From: Leptolyngbya sp. SIO1E4 | GTDB taxonomy: Bacteria; Cyanobacteriota; Cyanobacteriia; Phormidesmidales; Phormidesmidaceae | NCBI GenBank assembly: GCA_010672825.2 | Contig: JAAHFU020000001.1 | Location: forward strand, 2,294,001-2,358,000 | DNA length: 64,000 nt | Direction: 5' to 3' | In this document: in pieces, positions 41,733-55,158 of the stretch | How the letters are laid out: each line of letters begins with the position of its first letter | How positions within the stretch are numbered: position 1 is the first letter of the stretch | Translations under genes and position numbers: made by a program | The notes under the pieces: generated by a model | The model's input: only the letters and a program-made list of their open reading frames with translations | What the model was told of the DNA's origin: nothing | The model's database searches: none

Positions 41733-42047
41733 CTACTCCCAGATCTCATCTTCAGCGGCCCAGGTGCTGACGAGGCGCAGAACTTCGGGAATCTCTGCCG
41801 CTGGGGGGAACTCTAATAAGGTTTCGCGATCGCCCAAGTAGCCGGATGCAGCAAATGACATCAGCATCCGACAGAGGGCAACCCATACGGTTTCATCAAA
41901 GACCCAGTGCTGAGCGAAACGCGCCTCATCGGCAATCGACCGTAGCGCCCAAAAATAACTGTTGCGCACTACAGAACCCGGCTTTTTATACTGCGGGACA
42001 TCCGCTTGGTGCACCAGCAAAATTGGTAAATCAACGCAGCAGCGCAT
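41733..42047 (-). CDS. Unknown protein
   Basis: The product is 104 residues from ATG 42047 (MRCCVDLPILLVHQ), or 119 from 42092. I chose the shorter form, because the upstream 15 residues have weak coding character. It is a soluble, acidic protein with Trp-rich segments (NSYFWALRSIADEARFAQHWVFDETVWVALCRML, STWAAEDEIWE). No domain is recognised. It is divergent from the ABC ATPase gene with about 140 bp between, and stands alone. Confidence 0.5.
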   Translation of the reverse strand: MRCCVDLPILLVHQADVPQYKKPGSVVRNSYFWALRSIADEARFAQHWVFDETVWVALCRMLMSFAASGYLGDRETLLEFPPAAEIPEVLRLVSTWAAEDEIWE

Positions 42048-42185
42048 GGCTACCCTCAACGCGATAGCATATGGCCCTATCTCCCCTGTCACCTTCGACT
42101 TGAAGAAGGATGGCCAAGCTTTTACCTTAAGTCCATAGGGACTTAGATTCCAACCGCCTCTCCGTTCAATTTATTTAAGACACAT

Positions 42186-43037
42186 ATGACAGCGGCAGTT
42201 TGCGTTCAGAATGTACACAAGGTTTACAACAATGTTCACGTCGTCAATGACCTCTCTTTGATGATTGACCCTGGGGAGAGTTTTGGGCTCTTGGGGCCAA
42301 ACGGGGCGGGAAAGTCCACCACAATTCGCATGCTAACCACCCTGACAAAACCTTCCGATGGCCATTTGGTGGTGGCTGGGTACGATGTCCAGCAAGATCC
42401 CACAGACGTCCGGCGGCAAATCGGCGTCGTGCTGCAACAAACCAGCGTGGATGGTGACCTTTCTGTTTGGGAGAATATGGAGTTCCACGGACTCATGCAC
42501 CATATCCCGAACACACAGCGGCAGCGACGCATTCGAGAATGGCTGGCCTTCGTAGAACTGATTGATCGCCGCGATGACAAGGTCAAAACCCTCTCAGGGG
42601 GCATGAAACGACGACTCCAGATTGCCCGAGCCCTGCTGCATGATCCCAAAATTCTCTTTCTTGATGAGCCTACCGTTGGGCTTGATCCTCAAACTCGACG
42701 GCGTCTGTGGGAGCTGATTCGCAGCCTCAACCAGCAAGGGATGACGATGCTGCTTACAACCCATTACATGGAAGAAGTCGAATGCCTCTGCGACCGTATC
42801 GGCATTCTTGACCAGGGTCAGCTGATCGAACTTGGAACGCTAGATGAACTGCGCCGCAAGCACGGAGAGGGGATCGTCATGCAGCAGCAGGGCGATCGCT
42901 GGCAATACACTTTCTTTCCTACCCTGATAGATGCTAACCACTACCTCGATCAGCAACCCGATAAAACAGGAATGATGACTCGCCCATCGAATTTAGAAGA
43001 TATCTTTGTAGAACTTACGGGTCGCAATCTGGACTAG
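42186..43037 (+). CDS. ABC transporter ATP-binding protein (DrrA/NatA-like)
   Basis: The 283-residue soluble ATPase has Walker A GPNGAGKST (near residue 40), Q-loop GVVLQQTSVDGDLSVWEN, signature LSGGMKRRLQIARALLHDP, Walker B ILFLDEPTVGLDPQTRR and switch TTHYMEEVECL. The C-terminal section (PSNLEDIFVELTG) is typical of ABC-2 exporters such as DrrA. No ABC-2 permease is next to it. Instead scpB starts 9 bp after its stop, an unusual pairing. The cargo is unknown. Confidence 0.92.
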   Translation: MTAAVCVQNVHKVYNNVHVVNDLSLMIDPGESFGLLGPNGAGKSTTIRMLTTLTKPSDGHLVVAGYDVQQDPTDVRRQIGVVLQQTSVDGDLSVWENMEFHGLMHHIPNTQRQRRIREWLAFVELIDRRDDKVKTLSGGMKRRLQIARALLHDPKILFLDEPTVGLDPQTRRRLWELIRSLNQQGMTMLLTTHYMEEVECLCDRIGILDQGQLIELGTLDELRRKHGEGIVMQQQGDRWQYTFFPTLIDANHYLDQQPDKTGMMTRPSNLEDIFVELTGRNLD

Positions 43038-43046
43038 AACGCCTCT

Positions 43047-43649
43047 ATGGCGAGACTGGCAAGCGTAATCGAAGCCATTTTGTACCTCAAGGGACGCCCC
43101 TTGAGTATTTTGCGCATTGCAGAATATGCTGGCTGTGATCGCGACATGGCAGCAGAAGGGCTCATGGAGCTGATGAATGAATATGCCCATCGTGAAAGTG
43201 CCCTAGAAATTGTTGAAACAGATGAAGGGTACTGTTTGCAGCTAAAATCAGGATTTCGCCATCTTGTCGATACGCTCATTCCCTTAGATCTAGGGGTTGG
43301 TGCCTTAAGAACCCTGGCTGCGATCGCCCTCCGTGGCCCTATGGCACAGACGGACTTGGTGGATCTGCGCGGTTCTGGAGCCTATCAGCATGTTCAAGAA
43401 TTGGCGAAGCTAGGTTTTGTGCGCAAGCGTAGACAATCCGACGGACGCTCGTTTTGGTTACAGGTCACTGACAAATTTCACCAACACTTTGAAATTGACC
43501 AGTTGCCTAAAATTCCACCCAAAGTCTCTCAAGCAACTTCAGAGAATGCGGAAACCGTTGAAAAGACGGAGATTTCAGAGTTGGATCTCAGTGAAAATAC
43601 GCCGATAGACCGTGCAGATACGGCAACCTCTACAGAAATCTCTCCTTAG
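43047..43649 (+). CDS. scpB: SMC-Scp complex subunit ScpB
   Basis: ScpB is the winged-helix kleisin partner that works with SMC and ScpA in chromosome condensation and segregation. The product has 200 residues. The first winged-helix domain starts ASVIEAILYLKGRPLSILRIAEYAG, and the second contains LRTLAAIALRGPMAQTDLVDLRGSGAYQHVQELAKLGFVRKRRQSDGRSFWLQVTDKF. The conserved R-G-S turn is GSGAYQHV. The Ser/Thr/Glu-rich last 45 residues are disordered. It follows the ABC ATPase by 9 bp on the same strand. Confidence 0.9.
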   Translation: MARLASVIEAILYLKGRPLSILRIAEYAGCDRDMAAEGLMELMNEYAHRESALEIVETDEGYCLQLKSGFRHLVDTLIPLDLGVGALRTLAAIALRGPMAQTDLVDLRGSGAYQHVQELAKLGFVRKRRQSDGRSFWLQVTDKFHQHFEIDQLPKIPPKVSQATSENAETVEKTEISELDLSENTPIDRADTATSTEISP

Positions 43650-43828
43650 GAGTCTGTTAATCATTTGTTAGAGTGGTACAACACACTACTTAGTAAATGC
43701 CTGCGTTTAATCGTTCGCAAAGCCGGTTTCCCCAGAGTCATGGGGCTTGTAGGGTTTCTGGTTTCTCCGATGACTGGAATAATTAGGCCATCGGATCTAA
43801 GGTAAGGAGATAGGTAACCAGAGTTTCT

Positions 43829-44179
43829 ATGACATTTGACCCTGAGCGCGTTGATTTTGTTGGTCTGCATGTCGATGAGGAGTCTGCTAATCAACTATTG
43901 CAATATCTCAAACATCAGTCTCCTGAAGTTTTGAGTCGAGTTGCTCAAGCAGTTAGCCCTGAGATCAAACAAATCATTTCTCAGAATGTGCAAGGCTTGA
44001 TTGGTGTTCTACCCAACGATGGTTTCAACGTCCAGGTCACAACGGATCGTGAAAACCTAGCCGGGTTACTGGCATCTGCCATGATGACTGGGTACTTTCT
44101 CCGCCAGATGGAACAGCGAATGGAGATGGAAGTGTCTCTCACGGGCTCAATGTCTTTCGATACCGACCTTGACGAATAA
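43829..44179 (+). CDS. DUF760 domain-containing protein
   Basis: The product has 116 residues. DUF760 is found in cyanobacteria and in plant plastid proteins. The core is SANQLLQYLKHQSPEVLSRVAQAVSPEIKQIISQNVQGLIGVLP, followed by FNVQVTTDRENLAGLLASAMMTGYFLRQMEQRMEME. It is a mostly helical soluble protein with no known enzymatic motif. Plant relatives are linked to chloroplast stress response, but the bacterial role is not known to me. The ATG follows AAGGAG with suitable spacing. It stands alone. Confidence 0.9.
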   Translation: MTFDPERVDFVGLHVDEESANQLLQYLKHQSPEVLSRVAQAVSPEIKQIISQNVQGLIGVLPNDGFNVQVTTDRENLAGLLASAMMTGYFLRQMEQRMEMEVSLTGSMSFDTDLDE

Positions 44180-44388
44180 CGCCGAGCATTTTGGCACAGT
44201 CAAGAATTAGGCTTTTATTGACTCAGCTGTCTGCAATGGCTGTTACCTTTCAGGGCAGCTACAGCATCATACCCTCATTTTGCAGCGTCTAAAGCGGTTG
44301 CTAGCTCAACTAGGGTGAAATTTCTAGGAATTTGGATGTGTGACTAAGCATCAGAGCTGCACGCGGTGTCTTGTCCCAAATAGCTGCC

Positions 44389-45063
44389 CTAGAGATCTGA
44401 ATTGGGTGTGATTTTGTAGGCGCATCGCTGGTCACCAGAAACCAGATGTTCTGTGCGCTCTACAGTAACCTCCCTTCCCAGCACTGCCTGAAATACCGTC
44501 AGTTCCTCAGAGCACAGGCCTGTACAGGTGGTCGCCACCGTACAGATAGGGCAGTGCTTTTCTATCAGCAGCACTGAGCCATCGGCTTGTAGCTGCACAT
44601 CTGCCATATACCCTTCATGGGTGCGAATGTCTGCCAGCACTGCAACGCGTTCTTGCCACTGCTGGCTTTCCTGAATTTGCGCTCGATAGGCCTCAATCTG
44701 CTGGCGAGTTCTCACTTTGAGAAGACGATCTAACCCCTCATTGCCAAATGCTTCGGCCACTGATTGCACTAAGCTCAGGGTCAGCTCTGCATAGCCTTCT
44801 GGAAAGAAGCGGTTAGCAGCAGGGGTCAAATACCAGAGTTTAGCCGGTCGTCCCATCGGGCGAGGTTCTTCACGATAGGCAATGAGATGCTCAGCCTGCA
44901 AAGCATAAAGATGCTGTCGCACTGCCATCGCTGAGATACCGAGCTGCTCGGCTAATGACTGAGCATCCATCGCACCTTCCTGCTTGAGCAAATGGATGAT
45001 GGCCCGCCGGGTTCGGGGGGCATCTTTCTGTGAGCGGGAGCGGTTGTTGGGTTTTTGAGTCAT
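44389..45063 (-). CDS. SufR-like (COG2345) winged-helix regulator with altered cysteine set
   Basis: The product has 224 residues. The N-terminal winged helix (residues about 18-80; MDAQSLAEQLGISAMAVRQHLYAL, PMGRPAKLWYLT) and C-terminal region (TVERTEHLVSGDQRCAYKI) match the SufR/COG2345 family. As I recall it, true SufR has four Cys with spacing 12, 13 and 14. Here C171, C184 and C214 align, the third is Val199, and extra C174 and C180 create HCPICTVATTC. Iron-sulfur or other metal sensing is still possible, with different ligands. No suf genes are near. The gene is divergent from an MFS transporter, its probable target. Confidence 0.8.
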   Translation of the reverse strand: MTQKPNNRSRSQKDAPRTRRAIIHLLKQEGAMDAQSLAEQLGISAMAVRQHLYALQAEHLIAYREEPRPMGRPAKLWYLTPAANRFFPEGYAELTLSLVQSVAEAFGNEGLDRLLKVRTRQQIEAYRAQIQESQQWQERVAVLADIRTHEGYMADVQLQADGSVLLIEKHCPICTVATTCTGLCSEELTVFQAVLGREVTVERTEHLVSGDQRCAYKITPNSDL

Positions 45064-45440
45064 AGCAGCATTTTAAAGTTTTTTCTTTACAAAGTCGAAT
45101 GAGATTATTTATGATGGTTTTTAAAGATAAATCTTTAGTAAGTTGCAGCCCCCATTTCAGAGTAATAGAAGGTGGTGATGGCAAATCTGTTGCGTGTAGA
45201 GGCCAGAGGTAACTTGGGGCCGGTCTTTGCTGAGGGCTTGCTAAAGCCTAAAGACCGGGGTTGGCTGGTGGCAAAGAAGCTTTCCCATGCTGTTCATGAT
45301 GTGGGTGTAAGACCGCTGTGGGTTAAGGCGGATGGGTCTGCGACGACGCCTAAATTGACCCTATGGAGGTGTTCGATGCCTTCCCATGGGGAAAGCGCAG
45401 ATACCTGCTATGGCAGATGGCGGGGCTTAGGAGATTTCTT
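45064..45440. other. Shared regulatory region, SufR-like regulator/MFS
   Basis: This 377-bp region lies between the start of the regulator (45063) and the MFS start (45441). It contains the palindrome annotated next. A 91-codon frame (45172-45447) crosses the MFS start but shows no family features, so I treat the stretch as leader or non-coding. Confidence 0.45.
45122..45137. promoter_or_regulatory. Candidate operator, 7-bp arms
   Basis: TAAAGAT (45122-45128) and ATCTTTA (45131-45137) form a perfect inverted repeat around AA, 59 bp upstream of the SufR-like regulator's start. It is AT-rich and suits a dimeric winged-helix regulator controlling itself and the divergent MFS gene. Confidence 0.5.
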
Positions 45441-46691
45441 ATGGTGAAGACAGGGTGGCTACCCCGCCTCAATGCTCAGGTGTGGGTGTTGGTAGGGGGG
45501 CGATTTTTTTCTCAAATTGGCTCGGGCATCGTGTTGTTTTACGTGCCCATCTATTTCGTTAATCAGGTCGGGCTGTCGGCGACAGCGGTCGGAGGGGCGT
45601 TGAGCAGTGCGGCGATGGCGAGCGTTGTCGGGTATTTTCTGGCCGGTGCCATGACCGATATGCCGATGTGGGGACGGCGACGTACGCTCATGGTGTCTTG
45701 TCTGCTCTCTGTTGTGGCAGATGGGGTATTCTTGGCTGCCCACGGATTGTCTTTGCTCGTTCTGGCGAACGTGCTGATGGGGTTGGGGGATAGCCTCTAC
45801 TGGCCTGCTTCTGGGGCCGCCATCACAGATTTAACCGACAATGATGAGCGGGATACCGCCTTTGCCGTGTCAGGATTGGCGGATTCTTTAGGATCTGGCT
45901 TGGGCATTGTGGTGGGTGGGCTGCTGATTACCATGAGCGGCTCTTATTCTGTGCTGTTTATGGTGGATGGCATCACATTCCTGATTTTTCTGGGTGTCTT
46001 AGCCGCTATGGTCAAAGACTGTGATGTTGTAGTGCCTTCTCAAGAGGCCAAAACAGGGGTGCGAGCATGGCTTGCAGTCTGCTCCAATCCGCTGTTTCTT
46101 CTATTTGCGATCGCTAATATTCTGTTCACCACCTACATGAACTGGATGGAGAGTAGCCTGCCCCTTTACGTGACAAAGTTTGTGGGCAATCAAGGGACAG
46201 GCCTGGCCCCCGCAACGGTTGGCCTGTTGTTTTCTAGCTACGTGATTTTGGTGGCCGTCTGCCAGCTTCCCATCGTGCGCTGGCTCAGTGCCTACTCTCG
46301 AGTTCGGGCGTTGCGGCTGTCAATGCTTCTCTGGGGGGGTGGGTTTGGGCTGGTCGTGCTGGCGAGTGTTTTACCCACCGGTCAAGGGGTGCTGGTGATG
46401 ATAGCTTTGGGTGTGTTGGCGATCGCGAATGTGACCTATAACCCCTTTGCAGTGGCGTTAGTCAGCGAAATGGCTGCGCCTAGTTCCAGAGGTCTATATC
46501 TTTCGTTGAATGCTCAATGCTGGTCAGTTGGATATCTGGTTGGCCCTCTACTTGGCGGTTGGGCGTTGGATCAATCAGCAACTGCTGCCCATGGGTTATG
46601 GGCAGGTGCGGCGGTCAGCACGCTGATAGGGTTCTTGATTTTGGGGCAGCTCAGCCGACAGCAATACCTGGCTGAGAAACCATCGGCTTAA
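45441..46691 (+). CDS. MFS transporter
   Basis: The product is 416 residues from ATG 45441, which has AGGAG at 45429-45433 (7-bp spacing). The frame stays open to 45363, but that part is poor. Twelve hydrophobic segments are visible. The loop between TM2 and TM3 reads GAMTDMPMWGRRRTLMVS, the MFS G-x3-D-x2-G-R-R pattern. TM11-12 regions (YLSLNAQCWSVGYLVGPLLGGWAL) complete the fold. It resembles drug or metabolite exporters, and substrate is unknown. It is divergent from the SufR-like regulator and is likely under its control. Confidence 0.9.
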   Translation: MVKTGWLPRLNAQVWVLVGGRFFSQIGSGIVLFYVPIYFVNQVGLSATAVGGALSSAAMASVVGYFLAGAMTDMPMWGRRRTLMVSCLLSVVADGVFLAAHGLSLLVLANVLMGLGDSLYWPASGAAITDLTDNDERDTAFAVSGLADSLGSGLGIVVGGLLITMSGSYSVLFMVDGITFLIFLGVLAAMVKDCDVVVPSQEAKTGVRAWLAVCSNPLFLLFAIANILFTTYMNWMESSLPLYVTKFVGNQGTGLAPATVGLLFSSYVILVAVCQLPIVRWLSAYSRVRALRLSMLLWGGGFGLVVLASVLPTGQGVLVMIALGVLAIANVTYNPFAVALVSEMAAPSSRGLYLSLNAQCWSVGYLVGPLLGGWALDQSATAAHGLWAGAAVSTLIGFLILGQLSRQQYLAEKPSA

Positions 46692-46716
46692 GCGAGGCCA
46701 TGGCCCTTGTAATGGC

Positions 46717-46778
46717 GTTGTTCAGTTGAGCCCAGGCATCGTTTCTGTATATAGCGCAGATCTTTGTATAGCGCAGAA
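46717..46778 (+). repeat. Fragment related to the TATAGC/GTTCAGT element
   Basis: GTTGTTCAGTTGAGCCCAGG resembles the left part of the repeats near 52.1-52.4 kb. It is followed by two direct TATAGCGCAGA copies, but lacks the G-rich core. It probably represents a decayed or truncated copy between MFS and crp-like genes. Confidence 0.5.
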
Positions 46779-46798
46779 TCAACATCGCTTGCCGTATC

Positions 46799-47431
46799 CT
46801 AATCGGCCTGCAGGCTGCTGTAGGGTTGATGGGGCAGCAGAATGGCTCGCCTGGATGCAGAGAAAGAGGGCCCCTTGCCTGCGACTCTACTGGGCCTAAC
46901 TAGCTGCCCTTGGTTTTCTAAAGCGGCCAGTAGACGGGTCACCGTGACCCGCCCCGCCGAAATGATTTCGGCTAACTGCTGGTGGGTCAAGAGCGGTTCG
47001 AGTAAATATCCTTGAGGCACCGATTTCCCAAATCGTTGGGCTAGCCAATACAGCAGTTGAATCAGGCGTTCTGCCACAGAAGGCTGATGAATGATTCTCA
47101 GTAACTCTTCACTACGCCAAAGATGTTTCAGCAGGGCATCTTGCCAATACCCACCATGGCTACCTAAGGGCACATCATTCGCGACAACAGAGGTTAAGCA
47201 CTCTAACTGATAGGGTTGAATCTGCGTGAGACACTGACCCACAATATCGCCACGTCCCCATAGGCCAAAGGTGGTGACGTGACCCTGTTCATTCCAGGTG
47301 AGGGTGCGTACAATGCCGGTCTCGATGCGCCACACGCGATCGCGGATTAGGGGCAAAGACTCTTTGCGGCGAAAGGATGTCAGGACGGCTAGTGGGCTGC
47401 AGGGGTGAGAAGCTTTATCTGGCAAGGACAT
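46799..47431 (-). CDS. Crp/Fnr-family transcriptional regulator
   Basis: The product has 210 residues. The N-terminal cNMP-binding-like barrel is recognisable (VWRIETGIVRTLTWNEQGHVTTFGLWGRGDIVGQ). The HTH of the Crp C-terminal domain is LLTHQQLAEIISAGRVTVTRLLAALENQGQL. The cyclic-nucleotide phosphate-binding Arg pattern is absent. The FNR cysteine quartet is also absent (isolated Cys only, in SHPCSP, GQCLTQ and LECLTS), so the ligand is unknown. It is the last of five same-strand genes headed by the chlorophyll antenna gene, and is the obvious candidate to control that group. Confidence 0.85.
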   Translation of the reverse strand: MSLPDKASHPCSPLAVLTSFRRKESLPLIRDRVWRIETGIVRTLTWNEQGHVTTFGLWGRGDIVGQCLTQIQPYQLECLTSVVANDVPLGSHGGYWQDALLKHLWRSEELLRIIHQPSVAERLIQLLYWLAQRFGKSVPQGYLLEPLLTHQQLAEIISAGRVTVTRLLAALENQGQLVRPSRVAGKGPSFSASRRAILLPHQPYSSLQAD

Positions 47432-47454
47432 GGAGAGGAATGAGGGTGGAGGAG

Positions 47455-47512
47455 CAGGAGAGAGGGAGGGGACTGGGGGATTAGGGGATTGGGGGGGTAG
47501 GGTAGGGGATAT
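47455..47512 (+). repeat. G-rich heptamer-like repeat (STRR-like)
   Basis: The plus strand reads GGGGACT, GGGGGAT, TAGGGGAT, TGGGGGGG and TAGGGTAGGGG in succession. The opposite strand has the CCCCAAT/CCCCAGT style of heptamers described as short tandemly repeated repetitive sequences in cyanobacteria. It separates two genes of the antenna group and could fold as a G-quadruplex. Confidence 0.65.
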
Positions 47513-47839
47513 TTAACGGTTGAGGAGCAGCCATCGTTTGCCGTGTGGCTTGGATGGAATAACCCGGATTTGAGGCTGTTTAGGCTCGTAGTCGCAGCAG
47601 TGAAGGGCGTCTTCTGAAAAGGCGGAGACTGGATTTACGGTGCATTTTAAGTAAGCGCTGCCGGTGTAATACTTGCAGCGGTGGCAGGGGATTTGGTGTA
47701 GTCGTCTGAGCTGCTGAATCGCGTCTTGCACGGTTAAGCACAGGGTCAAAATAAACGCAAGCAGAACCGCCCAGATGACTAATGGGACAAAGAGTGCCAG
47801 CAGGCTATCGAAGGCTGGGCTTGAAACTTGCAGAATCAT
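47513..47839 (-). CDS. Small membrane protein with Cys-rich C-terminus
   Basis: The product is 108 residues from ATG 47839, two bases after the hydrolase stop. An earlier start at 47902 would overlap the hydrolase. A long hydrophobic stretch (FDSLLALFVPLVIWAVLLAFILTLCL) is followed by IPCHRCKYYTGSAYLKCTVNP and ALHCCDYEP. That gives a CxxC and two later Cys sites that could bind zinc or a cluster on the cytoplasmic side. No known family is recognised. The 2-bp spacing implies translational coupling with the hydrolase. Confidence 0.7.
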   Translation of the reverse strand: MILQVSSPAFDSLLALFVPLVIWAVLLAFILTLCLTVQDAIQQLRRLHQIPCHRCKYYTGSAYLKCTVNPVSAFSEDALHCCDYEPKQPQIRVIPSKPHGKRWLLLNR

Positions 47840-47841
47840 AA

Positions 47842-48660
47842 TTATGAGTAAGCAGATTGCAGACAAATAGACGGGGTAGCCTGTGGGTCTGTAGTGTCCC
47901 AAAAGCTAAAAATTTGGTTGGCGACGCGCTGGGGGTGGGTGGCATGAAAAAAGTGTCGTCCGCCTGGGCATAACCACATGCGATCGCCTGGCTTGAGCCA
48001 GGGTTGCCAGCCCTGAAGTTGTACTGGATCAACAATGGCATCGTGATGGCCCCCGCAAACTAGTAAGGGCACGGGTACACTTGCTGGGAATAAACTGAAC
48101 CGTTGCATTAAAGAATGAAGCGAAAAGGACTGGGTCAGATCTGCTTCTAGCAGCTCCATCCAGCCTTTCAATGCATGAACTTGCTGACGCCCAAATAAGG
48201 TATAGACCATCTGCGTCAGCACCCGGGAGCGAGTGCAAGGTAGCAATTCTAACTGGGTATAGTAGTGAGCCTTCCAGTCCACCGCTGGATTCACGCCCAC
48301 CGATAGCACGGTGAGTGACTTGACCCGACGAGGAAACTGGCGAGCATAAAGCAATCCTAGGAGCCCACTTGTGCTGTGCCCGACGAGGTGTAGGGGGCGA
48401 TCGCACCCTTTGACGTAATCATGTAAGAGCGTTAAAGCAACTTCTAGCGAACTTGGCTCATCCGGAGTTTGAAAATAGGCCCAGTGAGCGACTCGGCTGC
48501 GGTTGGCTAGGCAAAGTAAGAGTTTCTGGTCTAACCGCTGAAAGCTCGGGCTGACATTTAGCCATAGAACCTCTGGGGTCGTGGGCTTCTCGTGCAGCGC
48601 TTCAGCAACTCCTTCGGGGTAACCCGTTTGGCTGCCATAGGACAACGCAATTCTGCTCAT
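47842..48660 (-). CDS. Alpha/beta hydrolase
   Basis: The product has 272 residues from ATG 48660, which is preceded by GAGG. A TTG four codons upstream is less likely. The nucleophile elbow is GHSTSG (about residue 94). The acid region is LLVCGGHHDAIVDPVQLQGW, and the catalytic His is in CPGGRHFFHATHP. These give a complete Ser-Asp-His triad. The length suits a small-molecule esterase, lipase or haloperoxidase-like enzyme. Its place in the chlorophyll-antenna group invites a pigment- or lipid-ester role (chlorophyllase has the same fold), but the sequence does not show this. Confidence 0.85.
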   Translation of the reverse strand: MSRIALSYGSQTGYPEGVAEALHEKPTTPEVLWLNVSPSFQRLDQKLLLCLANRSRVAHWAYFQTPDEPSSLEVALTLLHDYVKGCDRPLHLVGHSTSGLLGLLYARQFPRRVKSLTVLSVGVNPAVDWKAHYYTQLELLPCTRSRVLTQMVYTLFGRQQVHALKGWMELLEADLTQSFSLHSLMQRFSLFPASVPVPLLVCGGHHDAIVDPVQLQGWQPWLKPGDRMWLCPGGRHFFHATHPQRVANQIFSFWDTTDPQATPSICLQSAYS

Positions 48661-48759
48661 TTCAATCCTCAACGTATCAACAACAATCGAAGGCTGTTTT
48701 CGGTAACGTCTCCCTGACTGGATTCACCGAGGTCACTCAGTCTCAGGGGGTAAGAGAGG

Positions 48760-48921
48760 TTAAATATCTTCGGAGAAAGGCGGTAAGAGAACAGGATTTC
48801 GGTTTCTCCCTTGTTTCGTCTGCAGTAATGGCATGACCTGACGGCAGGTAGGGCAAACCCAATAGAGGCCACCTTTGTCGGCATGGCGAAGCAGGGTGTC
48901 AGAGCAGCAAGGACAGTTCAT
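48760..48921 (-). CDS. 53-residue zinc-ribbon protein
   Basis: A short frame from ATG 48921 encodes MNCPCCSDTLLRHADKGGLY, then WVCPTCRQVMPLLQTKQG, and ends PPFSEDI. The two CPxC knuckles (NCPCC and VCPTC) are spaced as in a zinc ribbon. AGGA lies 7 bp before the ATG. The frame sits between the antenna gene and the hydrolase on the same strand. An overlapping longer frame (48669-48884) has no motif and is rejected. Zinc ribbons of this size often bind nucleic acids or act as adaptors. Function here is unknown. Confidence 0.7.
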   Translation of the reverse strand: MNCPCCSDTLLRHADKGGLYWVCPTCRQVMPLLQTKQGRNRNPVLLPPFSEDI

Positions 48922-49009
48922 TTCAAATCCTGACTAATCTTTTTAGGAAAGGGGGCAGTGTGGGTAGGAGTCCGGGCTGCCCCCAGACCAAGACGATTAG
49001 CCTAAATGC

Positions 49010-50035
49010 TTAAGATTCAACGGCACTCAGCGCTTTTTCAACGCGACGAAAATCGAATCCGATCGCCCGCAGGGCGTGCCACAGATGACCTTGTAGGAAG
49101 AAAAAGGCCAGGAAAAAGTGAGCATTGGCCAACCAGCAGCGAGACGTATGCGCATTCAACGGCAAATGAATCGTGTCAGCAAAATAAGGGGTGATGCCGA
49201 GTTTCACTTCTAGGGGAGCACCGTAAAATTCCACAGGATAGGCCAAGGTATTCACGGCACAGAAGTAAGCGGCTACAAAGCCTGCGAGGGCGATTCCCCC
49301 TAAGGAATAGGACAAAATGGCTTCTCCCGAAAACTGCAGTACGTTTCTGGCCCACTTCAACGGTGGTATCAAGATGTGCCAGACCCCGCCTGCAATCAGC
49401 AAGGCCCCTACATAAACGTGACCGCCGACAAGATCTTCCAGGCTGCTAATACTGGCAAAGTGAGTTTGGTAACCATAGATGACCAATGGGTCAAGGGTTG
49501 GCTGAACTAATCGCACTGTTTGACTCGTGGCATCGTACAGACCACCCCAAGTCGTTGCTTTAGCCACCAACAACAGAGCCCCTACCCCTAAAAACAGTAG
49601 GTGATGACCCAAAATTAGCCCCAACTGCGCTGGGTCATCCCAGTCAAAATGGAATTTCTGGGCTTGGCCTTTTGCGTCTTGCAAATTTGCGGGAGCCTTA
49701 AAGGTATGAAATAACGCCCCTGCACCCAAAACAGCGGAAGAAATAAGATGCAGCGCCCCGATTACAAAGTAGGGATAAGTGTCAACAATTTGCCCGCCCT
49801 CACCGACGCCAAACCCGAGAGTGGCTAAATGAGGTAATAAGATAAGTCCTTGCTCACCCATCGGGAGGCTGGGGTCAAACCAGGACAGTTCAAACAGGGT
49901 AAATGCGCCTGCCCATAGGGTAATCAGAGCGGCTTGCGCGACGTGGGCTGCAATAAACAGTCCTGACTGTTTGGTAAAGCGGGCATTGCCTGCCCACCAG
50001 TCATAGATCACGGCCGTATTGCCATAGGTTTGCAT
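49010..50035 (-). CDS. Chlorophyll-binding antenna protein, Pcb/IsiA (CP43-prime) type
   Basis: The 341-residue thylakoid protein has six membrane segments and conserved chlorophyll-ligand His residues. The N-terminus [35 protein letters not shown], the middle [17 protein letters not shown] and [23 protein letters not shown], and the C-terminus [26 protein letters not shown] are all characteristic. It lacks the large lumenal loop of PsbC. Family members form antenna rings around photosystem I or II, under iron or other stress. Whether it is IsiA or another Pcb clade needs a tree. A 23-bp palindrome lies 43 bp upstream of the start, and four same-strand genes follow. Confidence 0.9.
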
Positions 50036-50545
50036 CGCAATTGAATTCCTTAACGAAAGCGTCCAACTTGAGAAAGCTTATTGACAAAATTTGTCAATAA
50101 CTGATTTGAACACAGATCAGAATAAGTCGCAATAAGAAGGCGATGAAGTTTTATGTCCTTTCCGATGTAGGTGCTTGACCTGCCGTGAGGAATGCGTCTT
50201 CGCGAGGCGTCGTCAAGTCAGCTGCTTGAACCCTTAGGCGCTGATATCAATACAATTTCATTAATCTTGAAGCTTTCTCATTGCAGGCAGCATCTTATTC
50301 AATTGAGAATCCATCTTTCATAGACTTTTGCCGAATTCCATCAACCTGGTTATTCCTAATGATATTTAGTTGCGATAGCTTTGTTTTTCTGATAACACTG
50401 GTTTACAGGTGATTGCTACAGTCTGTACCCTCGGCAACTGCTAAATGCTCGGTGCATGGCTGTCCATGAAGCGACTACCTGGGGATATCGAGAAGAGATC
50501 TCCTGGTTGGCAGGGTGATCCTTAAATGTTTGCTCCTAACCTAGT
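50036..50545. other. Upstream region of the antenna gene
   Basis: More than 500 bp lie between the antenna gene and the rightward genes. The 23-bp palindrome is at its left end. GCTTGAC (50173) and GTCAAGTC (50212) form a looser inverted pair. An ATTCAATTGAGAAT segment near 50300 is partly palindromic. No gene is recognised. Confidence 0.4.
50078..50100. promoter_or_regulatory. Perfect 23-bp palindromic operator before the antenna gene
   Basis: The arm TTATTGACAAA is followed by a central A and then TTTGTCAATAA, its exact reverse complement. On the gene strand it contains a TTGACA hexamer, so it may overlap the -35 box. It begins 43 bp before the antenna ATG. The TTGAC half-sites are separated by 7 bp, unlike the 4 bp of the FNR consensus TTGAT-N4-ATCAA, so a different dimeric regulator or a distinct Crp/Fnr subtype is likely. 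Confidence 0.75.
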
Positions 50546-50563
50546 GTGGTGGTACGGGCTGTC

Positions 50564-50779
50564 ATGGAAAATCTCTCGAAAAGTCGCTTAAATGTAGCTA
50601 CGATGCGGCCCGGTGAAATCCTGGTTACTTCTGCAGTGGTTACTTCTGCAGCCGCTGACATAGAGTTGCACTCTGGAGTGGTCAGTTTGCCCTGGTGGGA
50701 TGGTGACTATCGTCGTTGCGATCGCATGGGTAGCAACCATCTCGTAATCAACAGTACAGCGTGGTTAACCCATGAATAA
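50564..50779 (+). CDS. Possible small upstream reading frame
   Basis: The frame gives 71 residues from ATG 50564, or 77 from GTG 50546. Its stop overlaps the methyltransferase start in an ATGAATAA arrangement (8-bp overlap), which would allow translational coupling. A 15-bp duplication (GGTTACTTCTGCAG) gives the repeated VTSAVVTSAA. No domain, hydrophobic segment or clear SD is visible. It could be chance. Confidence 0.25.
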   Translation: MENLSKSRLNVATMRPGEILVTSAVVTSAAADIELHSGVVSLPWWDGDYRRCDRMGSNHLVINSTAWLTHE

Positions 50780-51593
50780 CTCGTCTCAAGCAACGGCTCT
50801 GGCTGGAGTGCCACGAACTCTACTGATGACGACTCGGGCACGAGTTGAGGAACATGCGCGTCCTGATGGCATCTTCCGAGACCCTCGAGTTGCTGAGTGG
50901 TGGCCGTCTTTGCCATGGGATCCGGATCTGGAGTCAATGTATAGTCCGATGACCCAGCTAGGGTGGGCGGTGCGTGCTCATCTGTTTGATGAAGTGGTGC
51001 AACGGCACCTATCTACCTATGCCAATGCGGTTGTTGTCGAACTGGGGGCAGGTTTATCTACCCGCTATTATCGGGTCGGGCAGCGTTGCGGTTGTTGGCT
51101 AGAGCTGGATCTCCCGGAGGTCACTGCGTTGCGCCGTTGCCTTGATACCGAGAGTGAGCATCATCGGTTTCTGAGCCGTTCGGTTCTGGATTTTACCTGG
51201 CTTGATGAGGTGCCAAAGGGCCCTCCTGAAACCTGTTTGCTGCTTGCTGAAGGGTTGCTCATGTATTTTGAGCCCGACCAGGTACAGGCCTTAATCACCC
51301 AGCTAAAACAGCGCTTTTTAGGAGCAGTCCTCGTATTTGATGCCGTTGGAGGCGCTACGAAAGGCAGTGGGGCAAAGCAGCTCGCTCAATTAGGGGCACC
51401 TCTGAAATGGTTTATTAACAACGAGCAAGACATTGCAGCGCTGGGCTTATCTATAGTGGAAGCGCGATCGCTCGTGCAAGAAAACTGTCGCTATCCCCAC
51501 CGCATTGGCGGGTTCCGCTGGGTTCCCTGGCTCAGTCAACTACCCCCTCTCCGAAATGCTTCCTTAATTTTGGAGACTCGGCTGAAAAGCTAG
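50772..51593 (+). CDS. Class I SAM methyltransferase, LCM/PpmA-like O-methyltransferase
   Basis: The product is 273 residues. The leucine-carboxyl-methyltransferase plan is clear: an N-terminal cap (PRTLLMTTRARVEEHARPDGIFRDPRVAEWW), the SAM loop VVELGAGLSTRYYRVG, WLELDLPEV as the acidic strand, and CLLLAEGLLMYFEPDQVQALI, the family's AEGLLMYL motif. Members methylate carboxyl groups or polyketide-type acids. No polyketide genes are near and the substrate is unknown. The next gene begins 54 bp downstream on the same strand, suggesting an operon. Confidence 0.87.
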   Translation: MNNSSQATALAGVPRTLLMTTRARVEEHARPDGIFRDPRVAEWWPSLPWDPDLESMYSPMTQLGWAVRAHLFDEVVQRHLSTYANAVVVELGAGLSTRYYRVGQRCGCWLELDLPEVTALRRCLDTESEHHRFLSRSVLDFTWLDEVPKGPPETCLLLAEGLLMYFEPDQVQALITQLKQRFLGAVLVFDAVGGATKGSGAKQLAQLGAPLKWFINNEQDIAALGLSIVEARSLVQENCRYPHRIGGFRWVPWLSQLPPLRNASLILETRLKS

Positions 51594-51647
51594 TCTCAAT
51601 GGAATTCCCACGATGGCATCCTCATCCTATGGCACGGAGTCTGAATC

Positions 51648-52088
51648 ATGAACCCATCGATTGATATCGCCTGTGGATTTTTAGGCGGAACTATTCTCTC
51701 CGTTGAAGGGGGCTATCGGGTGTTGCAGCATCCTCGCCCTGAGCGCGTATTCGATCGCATCGCTGATGCTCGCTGGTTTCTGGCGGTTAACTGGTGCGAT
51801 CAGAGCTTTACCCCCGCTGGCATTCTCACCCATGCAGGGCAGCTCTCCTTTCAAAATCAGGCTGCTTTAGCGGTCGGCGAAACCGCCTTTTTGCCCTTAG
51901 AGCACCGCAAAGCCGTCTTCAATGACTGCCTATCCCTCATGCCGGGAGAATCTACGACCTACACAATTCACTCGCCGCGCCATCGATTCTGTCATCAGGT
52001 ACAAATTCTGGGGCTTGAAATTGATCCCCGCTATGGCAAAGTTGCCCTTGTTAAAGCTCTAGAAACGGAATCAGTGACGGAGTTATAG
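51648..52088 (+). CDS. Unknown protein
   Basis: The product is 146 residues and I recognise no family. It has a beta-rich look (CGFLGGTILSVEGGYRVLQHP, ARWFLAVNWCDQSFTPAGILTHAGQLSF) and conserved-looking acidic and aromatic residues near YTIHSPRHRFCHQVQILGLE. There is no signal peptide or membrane segment. It follows the methyltransferase on the same strand. The stop codon TAG lies inside the TATAGC end of the first repeat element, so the insertion may have set the present C-terminus. Confidence 0.55.
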   Translation: MNPSIDIACGFLGGTILSVEGGYRVLQHPRPERVFDRIADARWFLAVNWCDQSFTPAGILTHAGQLSFQNQAALAVGETAFLPLEHRKAVFNDCLSLMPGESTTYTIHSPRHRFCHQVQILGLEIDPRYGKVALVKALETESVTEL

Positions 52089-52202
52089 CTGTGTTCAGTG
52101 GAGTCTAGGATATCTGGGTTAAGGCAGGGTCTAGGGTTTGGGGTCTAGGGTTTGCTTGATCCAAATGTAAACTGCTCGATATCCGAATGGCGCTGACCTA
52201 TA
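52084..52202 (+). repeat. TATAGC...GCTATA element, copy A
   Basis: This is the first of three tandem copies. It begins TATAGC overlapping the stop codon of the preceding gene. GTTCAGTGGAGTCTAGGA follows, then a G-rich core with tracts GGG, GGG, GGGG and GGG separated by TCTA or TTT. The right end has decayed (ATCCGAATGG) and runs into copy B. Confidence 0.75.
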
Positions 52203-52301
52203 GCCTTGTTCAGTTGAGTCCAGTACATCTGGGTCAAGACAGGGTCTAGGGTTTGGGGTTTGGGGTCTAGGGTGTGCCTGATTAGCCTGCATACCGCTAT
52301 A
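52199..52301 (+). repeat. TATAGC...GCTATA element, copy B
   Basis: This is the best-formed copy, 103 bp. It starts TATAGCCTTGTTCAGTTGAG and ends CATACCGCTATA, giving 6-bp terminal inverted repeats (TATAGC/GCTATA). The core has five G-tracts. No open frame crosses it. Confidence 0.8.
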
Positions 52302-52394
52302 TGACTTTGTTCAGTGGAGTCTAGGATATCTGGGGCAAGGCAGGGTCTAGGGCTTGGGGTCTAGGTGTGCTTGACCAGCCTGTATATCGCTATA
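52298..52394 (+). repeat. TATAGC...GCTATA element, copy C
   Basis: The third tandem copy is 97 bp and shares TATA with the end of copy B. It begins TATATGACTTTGTTCAGTGG, keeps the G-tract core, and ends TATATCGCTATA. Confidence 0.78.
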
Positions 52395-52913
52395 AGCCGT
52401 TCTGAATTGCTGAAAGTTTTGATGGTCGGTAAGTCGGGCACTGTTCACCGCCTCTAAATCAATGCGATTCCTCTGTATTCAGCCTTGGATATAGAAACTT
52501 TACACACGCACTATTACACCTGAAAGACTCGTTAGGACAATTGGATTTCCTGAAATCCTGATGCAGCAAGGTCTTTATTCCTGCCTTCTGCCTATATGGG
52601 TCTGTGTACCGCCATTCTGAACAGACTGACGGTAGCGAAGCTTTTCAGCACTGGCTAGTGCGCGTGGCTGCTTGAATGATGCAATGCAGCAGTGCGGGTA
52701 ATACAGATTTGATACAAATTGCTGACGCTACATGGCGAGTGCTGCTGCAAATGCTTGCTGAACGGAAGCTAGCGCCTGCTCAATAGATGGTCGCTAGATA
52801 GTACAAAACTGAATTTGGCAACAGTGCTTGACACTTTGTAACATTATTCGTTACATTTATTTACAGTTGAGCAATTCAAGCGCACTGGGGCGACCCCAGT
52901 AGGAGGCAAAGCG
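52395..52913. other. Non-coding stretch and pgr5 promoter region
   Basis: The 519 bp between the repeat array and pgr5 hold no gene I can support. The last 90 bp contain a promoter-like TTGACA (52828-52833), an 18-bp spacer and TACATT (52852-52857). The inverted pair TGTAAC (52837) and GTTACA (52850), 7 bp apart, overlaps the spacer and -10. Confidence 0.45.
52828..52857 (+). promoter_or_regulatory. Promoter with overlapping inverted repeat, pgr5-psb35
   Basis: TTGACA and TACATT are 18 bp apart. Within them, TGTAAC and GTTACA form a 6-bp inverted repeat around 7 bp, a likely repressor or activator site. The 57 bp to the pgr5 start leave room for a short leader. Confidence 0.55.
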
Positions 52914-53111
52914 ATGTTTGCACCTGTGATTCTCTTGGTTCGTAATGTGATGGGAGATCCTAAATTCTTGAAGCTGCGAGGGCAGGCGATCGCGCTGCAC
53001 TCTAAAGCCATCACCCATTTTTGTAATCGCCTGGGTATTGAGCGCTCCCGTCGTCAGTCCATGATTCGCTTAGCCCGGGACAACGGCAAGCGGTTGGGGC
53101 TGTTGGCCTAG
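52914..53111 (+). CDS. pgr5: PGR5 family protein (cyclic electron flow)
   Basis: The 65-residue product matches the conserved core of plant PGR5: MFAPVILLVRNVMG, KFLKLRGQAIALHSKAITHFC and a C-terminus RLARDNGKRLGLLA, like the plant IRLAKKNGERLGFLA ending. PGR5 supports antimycin-sensitive cyclic electron flow around photosystem I and protects it in changing light. In Synechocystis the homologue is small and soluble, as here. AGGAGG precedes the ATG with good spacing. psb35 follows 78 bp later. I recognised the family by memory of the plant sequence. Confidence 0.88.
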   Translation: MFAPVILLVRNVMGDPKFLKLRGQAIALHSKAITHFCNRLGIERSRRQSMIRLARDNGKRLGLLA

Positions 53112-53189
53112 ACAATCTCTGGCCGCCCTTTTGCGTTTCTAACGCAACGATTTGTTCAAAACTTTGTATCTGAAAACGGAGAAACTCAA

Positions 53190-53423
53190 GTGTTTACACT
53201 GTTAACTGTTTTTGTCATCGTTGGTTGGGCTGCTGCAGCATTGATTGGCACTCAGGCTTACTTTCGTGGTGAGCAAACCAAGCCGATTCATGAGCGCAAC
53301 TGGCGTTCCGCATCCTTTGAAAAGCTGGCTCGTTCCTTCACCGGCTACGCAACGGATTACAACGAGCGCATTCCTGCTTATGGTGCAGATGCTTATGTCA
53401 GCAAGAACTTGCCGACCAAGTAA
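53190..53423 (+). CDS. psb35: Photosystem II assembly-associated protein Psb35
   Basis: The 77-residue product starts at GTG, with GGAG upstream. One N-terminal membrane helix (LLTVFVIVGWAAAALIGTQA) is followed by YFRGEQTKPIHERNWRSASF and a soluble tail. I recall this pattern from Ssl2148/Psb35, which stabilises the CP47 assembly module with high-light-inducible proteins in Synechocystis. The name rests on memory and should be confirmed by search. It is in a likely operon with pgr5 and ends at a strong terminator. Confidence 0.78.
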   Translation: MFTLLTVFVIVGWAAAALIGTQAYFRGEQTKPIHERNWRSASFEKLARSFTGYATDYNERIPAYGADAYVSKNLPTK

Positions 53424-53466
53424 GTCATACACATCCTGTGAGCTTGAGAGAGTCTAACAGCTGAAT

Positions 53467-53500
53467 AAACCCCCTGGACAAATCGTCCAGGGGGTTTTTT
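53467..53500 (+). terminator. Terminator of the pgr5-psb35 unit
   Basis: AAACCCCCTGGAC (53467-53479) pairs perfectly with GTCCAGGGGGTTT (53485-53497) around a 5-nt loop, followed by more T. It lies about 44 bp after the psb35 stop. The GH57 gene converges on it from the other side. Confidence 0.9.
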
Positions 53501-53568
53501 ATCGTCATCAAGCGTCGCTTTCGAGGTGTGCCGATTGCTTAGGATTAAAGTAGACGGGATTCGTGACT

Positions 53569-55158
53569 TTAAAGCGATCGATACACGTGGTAATCGATGT
53601 TGGGGAAGATATTGTCAATGGCTTCCACTTTGACCAACCACCCCGAATCAATTTTGCCCATCCGAATATCTTCCCAAAGTTTGTTGAAACGGACGAGGTG
53701 CGATCGCGTGCGGCGTACTGCATAGGGCACCATGGTTCCTGTCCGCATAATGAATGCCCAGTCAGACGATTGCGCCAAAAGCAGTTCTCGCGCTGCCTGG
53801 TTGAGTGCCCGTAATTCCAATTCATCAGCAGGCTCTCGCTTGGCCAATTCAATCATGCGCTCTGCTGCTTTATGAAGATGGGGATAGATCCAGGCATTGG
53901 TTTCATTGAGCCAATATTCGTGGAAGCCTTTGTATCCCCAACTAGACTGAGAGGGTCGGGAAACTTGCTGGTTGGGGTTATTGCGCAAGTAGTCGGCCAG
54001 GTGAGTCATCTCATAGGTATTTTGGTCATACCAGCTCTTGCGGAAGAGATAATCTAAAAACCATGGCCCCTCGTACCACCAGTGCCCAAAGAGTTCAGCA
54101 TCGTAAGGAGAAACAATGACGGGGGGCCGATGCATGATGTCGTGCAGATGCTCTACCTGGCGCTCGCGATTAAACATAAAGTTGGCTGCGTGCTCAGCCG
54201 CTTTTTCCCGCGCCCAGTAAGGGTCATACCATTCCTTATCGGAGAGACCTAACCCTTTACCCGTAATTTTGTGATACTTGATACCGACATTTTTCCGCTG
54301 ACCATTGGGCATGATGTAGGGCTTGATGTATTCATATTCTGCGTCCCAACCCAGGTCACGGTAAAACTCTCGATACTCTGACGCACCGGGATAGCCCACT
54401 TGGGATGACCATACCTGTTGTGACGATTCGTGGTCACGTCCAAATGCGGCCACTCCTGTCTCAGTGAAGATAGGAGCATAGGCACCAAAGCGGGGGCGCG
54501 GGCGGGCATAGAGAATACCATGTCCATCCGTCAGGAAATAGCGCAGGCCAGCGTCGGCCAACATCCGCTCTAGCCCTTCGTAATAGGCACACTCAGGCAA
54601 CCAGATGCCATTGGGAGGGCGATCAAAGTGTTCGGCGTAGCTCTCACAGGCTACCTGAATCTGTGCCCAGACGGCTTCAGGGTACATCTTCATCAGCGGC
54701 AGATAACCATGGGTGGCACCGCACGTAATGATTTCGAGATTATTGCTGTCCTGAAACTTCTTAAATGCCTTAACGAGATCGCGATCGTACTTTTCCCAAA
54801 TTTGGCGGACGTGGTTAAATTCCTTAGCGTAGGTTTCTGCTAGATAGCGCAAGTGCCCGGTATGGACGTTGCGTTCAGCTTCTAGCTCAATCAGTTCTTC
54901 TAGCTTAGTGAGATGGTCGTCGTAGCGTTCTTGCAGCAGCGGATCCCGCAGCATAGACACCAGCGGTGGGGTCATGCTCATGGTGATCTTGAAATCGATT
55001 CCGTCCTGTTTGAGCCCCTCAAACATGGTGATTAGGGGGACGTAGGTTTCGGTAATCGCCTCAAATAGCCACTCTTCCTCAAGCACAAAGTCGCTTTCTG
55101 GATGTCGGACAAAGGGAAGATGGGCATGAAGAACAAGGGCGAGATATCCGATACTCAT
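53569..55158 (-). CDS. GH57-family 1,4-alpha-glucan branching enzyme
   Basis: The product is 529 residues, the normal length for this GH57/DUF1957 type. The enzyme makes alpha-1,6 branches in glycogen. Motifs are HAHLPF (residues 11-16), the nucleophile Glu in GIWLPECAYYEG, and the acid/base Asp in SPYDAELFGHWWYEG. The C-terminal helical domain (NQAARELLLAQSSDWAFIMRTG) is also typical. It should act in the cytoplasm with glycogen synthase and GH13 GlgB. No other glycogen gene is in the window. The ATG start has the family MSIGYLALVLHAH. It is monocistronic. Confidence 0.93.
   Translation of the reverse strand: MSIGYLALVLHAHLPFVRHPESDFVLEEEWLFEAITETYVPLITMFEGLKQDGIDFKITMSMTPPLVSMLRDPLLQERYDDHLTKLEELIELEAERNVHTGHLRYLAETYAKEFNHVRQIWEKYDRDLVKAFKKFQDSNNLEIITCGATHGYLPLMKMYPEAVWAQIQVACESYAEHFDRPPNGIWLPECAYYEGLERMLADAGLRYFLTDGHGILYARPRPRFGAYAPIFTETGVAAFGRDHESSQQVWSSQVGYPGASEYREFYRDLGWDAEYEYIKPYIMPNGQRKNVGIKYHKITGKGLGLSDKEWYDPYWAREKAAEHAANFMFNRERQVEHLHDIMHRPPVIVSPYDAELFGHWWYEGPWFLDYLFRKSWYDQNTYEMTHLADYLRNNPNQQVSRPSQSSWGYKGFHEYWLNETNAWIYPHLHKAAERMIELAKREPADELELRALNQAARELLLAQSSDWAFIMRTGTMVPYAVRRTRSHLVRFNKLWEDIRMGKIDSGWLVKVEAIDNIFPNIDYHVYRSL

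What the first reader, a model, noticed from the sequence alone, without database searches (positions are those of the whole stretch)
46799..50035. Five-gene antenna cassette: chlorophyll protein, zinc ribbon, alpha/beta hydrolase, membrane Cys protein and Crp-like regulator
All five genes run on the minus strand, two are only 2 bp apart, and a single strong operator precedes the first. I know of no described unit that joins a Pcb/IsiA protein with a 53-residue zinc ribbon, a hydrolase with an intact triad and a dedicated regulator. A stress-induced antenna with pigment-ester or lipid processing is possible. The functional link is inference from order only; gaps of about 80-90 bp separate some genes.
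Basis: inference. Interest (0 to 1): 0.66.

Follow-up and report, generated by a model that had tools for sequence, protein, structure and literature searches.

The report
Iron-stress isiA operon without flavodoxin
The five genes are a local version of the well-known cyanobacterial iron-starvation (isi) operon, in which a chlorophyll protein is switched on when iron is scarce; it is mostly known biology, with a little-noticed small zinc protein and a 'hydrolase' whose family often lacks its catalytic residues.

Summary
In detail: five minus-strand genes, 2 to 99 bp apart, behind a conserved promoter region. The first protein is plain IsiA (TIGR03041 493 bits, cut-off 335; the five best PDB matches are IsiA). 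The unit is therefore an iron-stress isi operon, not a new cassette. Relatives carry subsets of isiA, zinc ribbon, isiB, hydrolase, 4-Cys membrane protein and Crp-like regulator. Here isiB is missing; flavodoxin sits 0.58 Mb away with a second hydrolase and 4-Cys gene. In Trichodesmium, a hydrolase/hypothetical/Crp-Fnr cluster, adjacent to isiAB by locus tag, is reported as over 100-fold up at low iron (PMC12090762). The operator is one of two Fur-box-like sites 35 bp apart, a type also common where no regulator is linked. The window hydrolase has an intact triad, but its family does not: Ser in 30, His in 52, full triad in 18 of 75. That argues against ester hydrolysis as the shared function. 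In 2 of 3 Synechocystis-like loci a zinc-ribbon frame lies between isiA and isiB.

The parts
49010..50035 (-). isiA, iron-stress-induced chlorophyll-binding protein (CP43'), 341 aa
   Evidence: TIGR03041 493 bits, cut-off 335; top five PDB matches all IsiA; 81% identical to the IsiA of PDB 6nwa over residues 1-338
48760..48921 (-). 53-aa zinc-ribbon protein (C3/C6 and C23/C26)
   Evidence: Pfam zinc-ribbon models only below cut-off; these Cys conserved in 14-16 of 16 homologous loci; only match in the genome; same position in 2 of 3 Synechocystis-like loci
47842..48660 (-). alpha/beta-hydrolase-fold protein, IsiC-type, 272 aa, triad S96-D207-H236
   Evidence: Abhydrolase_1 38.3 bits, cut-off 25.8; model pLDDT 87; PDB Z up to 20.6; triad mapped on lipase 4opm
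47513..47839 (-). 108-aa membrane protein with one long helix and four invariant Cys
   Evidence: C52, C55, C66, C81, P70, A73, D83 invariant in 63 of 63 aligned; helix 8-48 in the model
46799..47431 (-). Crp/Fnr-family regulator, 210 aa, weak cyclic-nucleotide domain
   Evidence: HTH_Crp_2 37.8 bits, cut-off 27; cNMP_binding 15.3, below its cut-off 27.5; PtrA model 73 bits, cut-off 300
50079..50099 (-). perfect 21-bp palindrome, Fur-box-like site 2 (near the inferred transcription start)
50114..50134 (-). Fur-box-like site 1, over the inferred -35 element
   Evidence: 14 of 20 positions; paired sites 32-39 or 45 bp apart in 43 isiA promoters, window included
50104..50132 (-). inferred promoter: TTGCGA (50127-50132), 17 nt, TCAAAT (50104-50109)
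   Evidence: read by eye from the sequence and from relatives; not found by the consensus scan
48951..48984 (-). 8-bp G+C hairpin after isiA, terminator/attenuator-like
   Evidence: z = -3.0, 2 of 200 shuffles fold as well; same-type hairpin after isiA in Nodosilinea relatives

Best explanation
This is an iron-starvation isi operon of a cyanobacterium with a large (8.2-Mb) genome, in a form without isiB at this place. When iron is sufficient, a Fur-type repressor sits on two boxes over the -35 element and the start site and keeps it off. When iron is scarce the boxes are freed and isiA is made strongly to build an antenna around photosystem I. A hairpin after isiA lets only part of the transcription run on into the zinc ribbon, the IsiC-type protein, the 4-Cys membrane protein and a Crp-like regulator. 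The regulator most likely acts as a second-stage iron-stress regulator. The IsiC-type protein uses an alpha/beta-hydrolase fold whose shared role is probably not ester hydrolysis. Shown: gene identities, conserved neighbourhood, Fur-like boxes, hairpin, erosion of the triad in relatives. Inferred: repression by Fur, attenuation, co-transcription, the regulator's role, and the function of the last four proteins.
For: IsiA identity. Conserved neighbours: among the 80 nearest named isiA loci, same strand within 5.5 kb downstream, 4-Cys protein in 45, hydrolase in 36, flavodoxin in 28, regulator in 13, zinc ribbon in 11; among the 63 with at least 4 kb held downstream 40, 32, 24, 11 and 10. The full set isiA-ZN-isiB-HYD-MEM-REG occurs in a relative, L135. 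In the 291-genome sample, of 76 genomes with both a listed isiA and a listed hydrolase, 47 have them within 3 kb (117 of the 150 listed isiA rows used, those of 67% identity or more, and the 150 listed hydrolase rows). Fur-like boxes: 57 of 89 isiA upstream regions reach 14/20 against 37 of 1780 shuffles. With the published Anabaena FurA consensus 49 of 89 reach 13/19 against 14 expected (consensus from PMC4005646, passage). Literature: Synechocystis isiA, isiB and sll0249 called co-transcribed and iron-induced (PMC3516471, passage); Trichodesmium hydrolase/hypothetical/Crp-Fnr more than 100-fold up at low iron (PMC12090762, passage). The own second unit isiB-hydrolase-4Cys has an 18/20 Fur-like box and lies beside ExbB- and TonB-like reading frames (the ExbB/TonB reading is mine from the sequence).
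Against: No expression data for this organism. Exactly this five-gene order (no isiB, with zinc ribbon and regulator) was seen in no other of the 75 hydrolase loci. In 29 of the 76 genomes with both a listed isiA and a listed hydrolase they are not within 3 kb, and 56 of 132 genomes with a listed hydrolase have no listed isiA. The regulator family is broad: 256 of 291 genomes have a match at 1e-12, and in only 19 genomes is a listed one within 2.5 kb of a listed hydrolase (best-150 lists). The 20-position Fur motif was partly composed from these promoters, so one search is not independent; one search is, and is weaker. The window site matches the published consensus at 14 of 19 at best. The inferred promoter is not found by the consensus scan.
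Confidence: 0.88

Rival explanations
1. The palindrome at 50079-50099 is the site of the linked Crp-like regulator, which controls the unit itself.
For: Regulator and operator are in one unit; the palindrome is perfect here. FurA-type sites are somewhat more frequent with a linked regulator (11 of 16) than without (38 of 73).
Against: Such boxes occur at the same places in many isiA promoters whose fetched locus holds no regulator. The 21-bp odd-length symmetry fits the 7-1-7 model discussed for FurA (PMC4005646).
Confidence: 0.12
2. The hydrolase is a working serine esterase acting on chlorophyll phytyl esters or thylakoid lipids during iron stress.
For: Window copy and its paralogue keep S96, D207, H236; best folds include lipases and C-C bond hydrolases.
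Against: Residue 96 is Gly in 45 of 75 and residue 236 is Tyr in 23 of 75 family members; the full triad is in 18 of 75, with 15 S/G and 9 H/Y changes on a tree built without these columns. The Synechocystis-like copies have Ser but Tyr for His.
Confidence: 0.2
3. The last four genes are separate from isiA and merely lie downstream, behind a terminator.
For: Strong hairpin after isiA; gaps of 81-99 bp.
Against: Recurrent neighbours across families; reported induction of the same kinds of genes with isiAB in Trichodesmium and of sll0249 in Synechocystis. The scan found no sigma-70-type promoter in the gaps, but it also missed the inferred isiA promoter, so this counts for little.
Confidence: 0.15

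Closest known systems
Synechocystis sp. PCC 6803 isiA-isiB-sll0249 (isiC) operon
   Same: IsiA first; the same hydrolase family downstream of isiA and isiB in a genome whose IsiA is 99% identical to PDB 6nwa; a zinc-ribbon frame between isiA and isiB there too
   Different: Window has no isiB here; it has the 4-Cys protein and the regulator, neither of which was found in the 6.5 kb of the Synechocystis-like locus. PCC 6803 itself was not compared
Trichodesmium erythraeum Tery_1667-Tery_1663 (isiA, isiB, hydrolase, hypothetical, Crp/Fnr)
   Same: isiA, isiB, hydrolase, 4-Cys protein and regulator stand together in a Trichodesmium MAG (L113); the T. erythraeum genes are reported as iron-stress induced
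   Different: Window lacks isiB and has the zinc ribbon; the IMS101 proteins themselves were not compared here
Nodosilinea / Leptolyngbya-type isi operons (L135, L042, L043)
   Same: isiA, hydrolase, 4-Cys protein, regulator, two Fur-like boxes 36 bp apart; hairpin after isiA in L135 and L042
   Different: They keep isiB between isiA and the hydrolase; in these three residue 96 is Gly

Membership tests
IsiA (CP43') | Passes the antenna family cut-off and is closer to solved IsiA than to CP43 or Pcb-type antennas | tested here: met
   TIGR03041 493 vs 335; psbC model 320 vs 603, not reached; PDB order IsiA 598-629 bits, other antennas 378 and below, CP43 318. No tree of antennas was built
isi operon | isiA followed on the same strand by isiB | tested here: not met
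   No flavodoxin frame in the window stretch 42001-54000; the best flavodoxin match is at G000:C1:1760883-1761347
isi operon | isiC-type hydrolase downstream of isiA | tested here: met
isi operon | Induced by iron starvation | not testable with these tools
   No expression data for this organism
Fur-regulated promoter | Fur-box-like sites over the promoter, conserved in orthologues | tested here: met
Fur-regulated promoter | Fur binds there | not testable with these tools
   Needs a gel shift or ChIP
Serine hydrolase of the alpha/beta fold | Ser-Asp-His triad in the window protein | tested here: met
   S96, D207, H236 (the stretch that places D207 and H236 is weak)
Serine hydrolase of the alpha/beta fold | Triad conserved across the protein family | tested here: not met
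   18 of 75 have all three
PtrA (NF053664) | Score over the curated cut-off of 300 | tested here: not met
   73 bits for the window protein; 64.5, 74 and 84 for three relatives
NtcA | TIGR03697 score over 244.95 | tested here: not met
   31.9 bits
IdiB (S. elongatus iron regulator; recalled) | Orthology to IdiB | not tested
   No IdiB sequence at hand
Zinc ribbon | Two CxxC knuckles, conserved | tested here: met
   C3/C6 and C23/C26, 14-16 of 16; no Pfam zinc-ribbon cut-off reached; zinc binding not tested

The most novel reading that the evidence does not exclude
IsiC is a non-hydrolytic alpha/beta-hydrolase-fold protein (a binder of pigment, lipid or protein) that works with a membrane 4-Cys protein and a zinc ribbon, and the Crp-like protein is the missing positive regulator of isiA in the lineages that carry it. 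The operon would then be a self-amplifying iron-stress module, of which only IsiA and flavodoxin are understood.
Probability: 0.3. Interest if true: 0.6.

Novelty: new variant of a known kind. Interest (0 to 1): 0.36.

Why it matters
The IsiA review (passages read) reports a proposed but unidentified activator of isiA besides Fur. A Crp/Fnr-type regulator that recurs in isi operons is a concrete candidate that can be deleted and tested. The erosion of the triad in the IsiC family redirects work on isiC, whose Synechocystis mutant is reported as sensitive to oxidative stress (PMC7968678, passage), away from esterase assays. The zinc ribbon may be a little-noticed member of a much-studied operon.

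Tried and rejected
Rejected: the membrane 4-Cys protein as the ssl0461 orthologue. The Synechocystis-like locus L207 has no 4-Cys motif frame in the 6.5 kb read; the gene after its hydrolase is an 83-aa frame without that motif, followed by a frame that I read as Dfp (that name is from recall).

Not supported: the palindrome as a site specific to the regulator. Rejected: H239 as the catalytic His; it is the more conserved His (72 of 75), but the profile alignment to lipase 4opm puts the catalytic His at H236 (that second aligned stretch is weak, i-Evalue 0.93, so this is supported, not proven).

Led nowhere: PDB fold search of the 4-Cys model, 0 matches at E<=10. The promoter/terminator scan found neither the inferred promoter nor the hairpin: its rules want A at position 2 of the -10 hexamer and a loop of at most 8. 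Stems after isiA were counted without a shuffled control (62 of 99 antenna frames), so I lean only on the fold and the likeness in the Nodosilinea group. Paper searches for isiC with hydrolase, IdiB, small proteins near isiA/isiB and the Crp/hydrolase/flavodoxin set gave little beyond the papers cited; older subscription papers are not held, so the zinc ribbon may be described elsewhere. The test of correlation between loss of Ser and loss of His had 6 usable independent pairs and no power.

Rows dropped: hydrolase set limited to frames of 230-360 aa, score over 250 and distinct tails (90 to 75; 75 again). Of the isiA-search rows listed, only the 117 of 67% identity or more were used. The flavodoxin count depends on the rule: 45 of 80 loci from 3 kb before to 7 kb after isiA on either strand, 28 of 80 when only downstream on the same strand. 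In the regulator tree 'isi-linked' was judged within short fetched loci, so some rows called 'other' may be linked; L076 is one such (one search shows isiA, hydrolase, zinc ribbon and regulator in that locus).
Full report
What is there. The five frames are real, all on the minus strand, with gaps of 88, 99, 2 and 81 bp. The antenna is IsiA: it passes TIGR03041 by a wide margin and misses the CP43 equivalog. The five best PDB matches are IsiA at 598-629 bits; the next antennas reach 378 bits and CP43 318. The zinc ribbon is the only match of its kind in the genome. The hydrolase passes Abhydrolase_1 and Abhydrolase_6; the regulator passes HTH_Crp_2, with a cyclic-nucleotide domain below its cut-off. 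The membrane protein has no Pfam family above cut-off, one long helix in a model of mean pLDDT 82 and pTM 0.53, and four Cys invariant in 63 of 63 aligned.

Neighbourhood. The nearest 80 named isiA loci were annotated with profiles built here. Downstream on the same strand within 5.5 kb: 4-Cys protein in 45 of 80, hydrolase in 36, flavodoxin in 28, regulator in 13, zinc ribbon in 11; 9 of the 63 loci with at least 4 kb held downstream have none of the genes searched for. Among 75 distinct hydrolase loci the commonest arrangement is isiA-isiB-hydrolase-4Cys (11). The full six-gene set with zinc ribbon and regulator occurs 3 times, and the window arrangement without isiB once. The closest relatives without isiB at this place are Oscillatoria sp. 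CS-180 (isiA-ZN-hydrolase-4Cys) and G196 (isiA remnant-ZN-hydrolase-regulator). In a sample of 291 genomes of the class, 178 have the hydrolase at 1e-15, 130 an IsiA-like match at 1e-120, and 256 some regulator relative at 1e-12. In the listed rows, 47 of the 76 genomes with both isiA and hydrolase have them within 3 kb and 29 do not; 19 genomes have regulator and hydrolase within 2.5 kb.

The missing flavodoxin. The genome's best flavodoxin match lies at C1:1760883-1761347, directly upstream of a second hydrolase and a second 4-Cys gene whose start overlaps the hydrolase's stop by 4 nt. A Fur-like box of 18/20 begins 289 nt upstream of it. The unit is beside frames that read as ExbB and TonB (my reading of the sequence). 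The isi genes are thus split over two places. The second hydrolase groups away from the window copy on the tree, so it is not a recent duplicate.

Control. Two 21-bp sites precede isiA, 35 bp apart. Of 89 distinct isiA upstream regions, 57 have a site of 14/20 or better, against 37 of 1780 shuffled sequences. With the published Anabaena FurA consensus (PMC4005646, passages read) 49 of 89 reach 13/19 against about 14 expected. Spacing of paired sites is 36 bp in 18 and 35 bp in 9 of 43 cases; the rest range from 32 to 45 bp. Sites are frequent both without a linked regulator (38 of 73) and with one (11 of 16), the second share being higher but from few loci. The -35/-10 reading places site 1 on the -35 and site 2 near the start; this is inference. 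The hairpin after isiA folds at -32.3 kcal/mol with its flanks, z = -3.0, and a similar G-run/C-run hairpin follows isiA in Nodosilinea-type relatives. Monocistronic isiA and dicistronic isiAB messages are described for Synechocystis (PMC8635728, passages read), which fits attenuation.

The regulator. Isi-linked regulators are clustered on a tree of 44 homologues but do not form one clade: 10 changes against 14.9 in shuffles, 2 of 500 as low. It is not PtrA or NtcA by the curated models. [quoted passage not shown] I take the regulator as a second-stage iron-stress regulator; that is inference.

The hydrolase. The model is good (mean pLDDT 87) and matches many alpha/beta hydrolases about equally: Z 20.6 for CarC, 20.1 for ABHD6, 19.9 for lipase 4opm. 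No substrate can be read from the fold. Alignment to 4opm puts the triad at S96, D207, H236 (strong for S96, weak for the other two). In 75 family members D207 is invariant, residue 96 is Ser in 30 and Gly in 45, residue 236 is His in 52 and Tyr in 23; the full triad is in 18, among them the window copy and its paralogue. On a tree built without these columns there are 15 Ser/Gly and 9 His/Tyr changes (16 Ser/Gly on an earlier tree); shuffled means are 23.5 and 20.0, so the states are partly inherited in blocks but still change many times. Meanwhile W60, Y62, H95, V121, W129, G157, D207 and F237 are invariant. A fold kept under constraint while its catalytic residues come and go points to a shared role other than Ser-His hydrolysis. 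That is inference, and the window copy could still be active.

The zinc ribbon. In two genomes whose IsiA is 99% and 97% identical to that of PDB 6nwa, a 59-aa frame matching the same profile (about 31 bits) lies between isiA and isiB; a third, at 86%, has none there. I did not see it described in the listings of searches; the library lacks most subscription papers.

Verdict. A real, conserved unit of a known iron-stress kind, in an isiB-less variant. The open and testable points are the regulator, the degenerate hydrolase family and the zinc ribbon.

Noticed in passing
L130:5212-5496; L142:5509-5811; L143:5366-5488; L144:5779-5963; L160:5917-6395: In five relatives isiA is a remnant at its usual place while other isi genes remain beside it. 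In two of them (G196, G243) the remnant is an open frame of 94 and 101 aa that holds an N-terminal and a C-terminal piece of IsiA.
   Followed up: partly
G000:C1:1759749-1761362 (L126:4750-6363): Second isi unit of the same genome: flavodoxin, second hydrolase with intact triad, second 4-Cys protein, beside ExbB/TonB-like frames and with an 18/20 Fur-like box.
   Followed up: partly
L146:6405-7214 and L147:6453-7196: A further hydrolase paralogue (Gly at residue 96) lies on the other strand next to a row of three IsiA-like antennas, one of them a 520-aa frame.
   Followed up: no
G000:C5:263764-267705 (L127:5765-9706) and G000:C1:781816-783414 (L128:5817-7415): The genome has three further CP43-like antennas in a row, one fused to PsaL (520 aa), and a lone 532-aa antenna whose C-terminal extension gave no other Pfam match at 0.01.
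   Followed up: partly
window 44389-45063 (-): SufR-like regulator (TIGR02702 136.8 bits, cut-off 178.8) near the isi unit, separated from it by an MFS transporter gene on the other strand.
   Followed up: no
window 46799-47431, residue C78: A Cys in the N-terminal part of the Crp-like regulator is conserved in 43 of 44 homologues; redox or metal sensing is possible.
   Followed up: no
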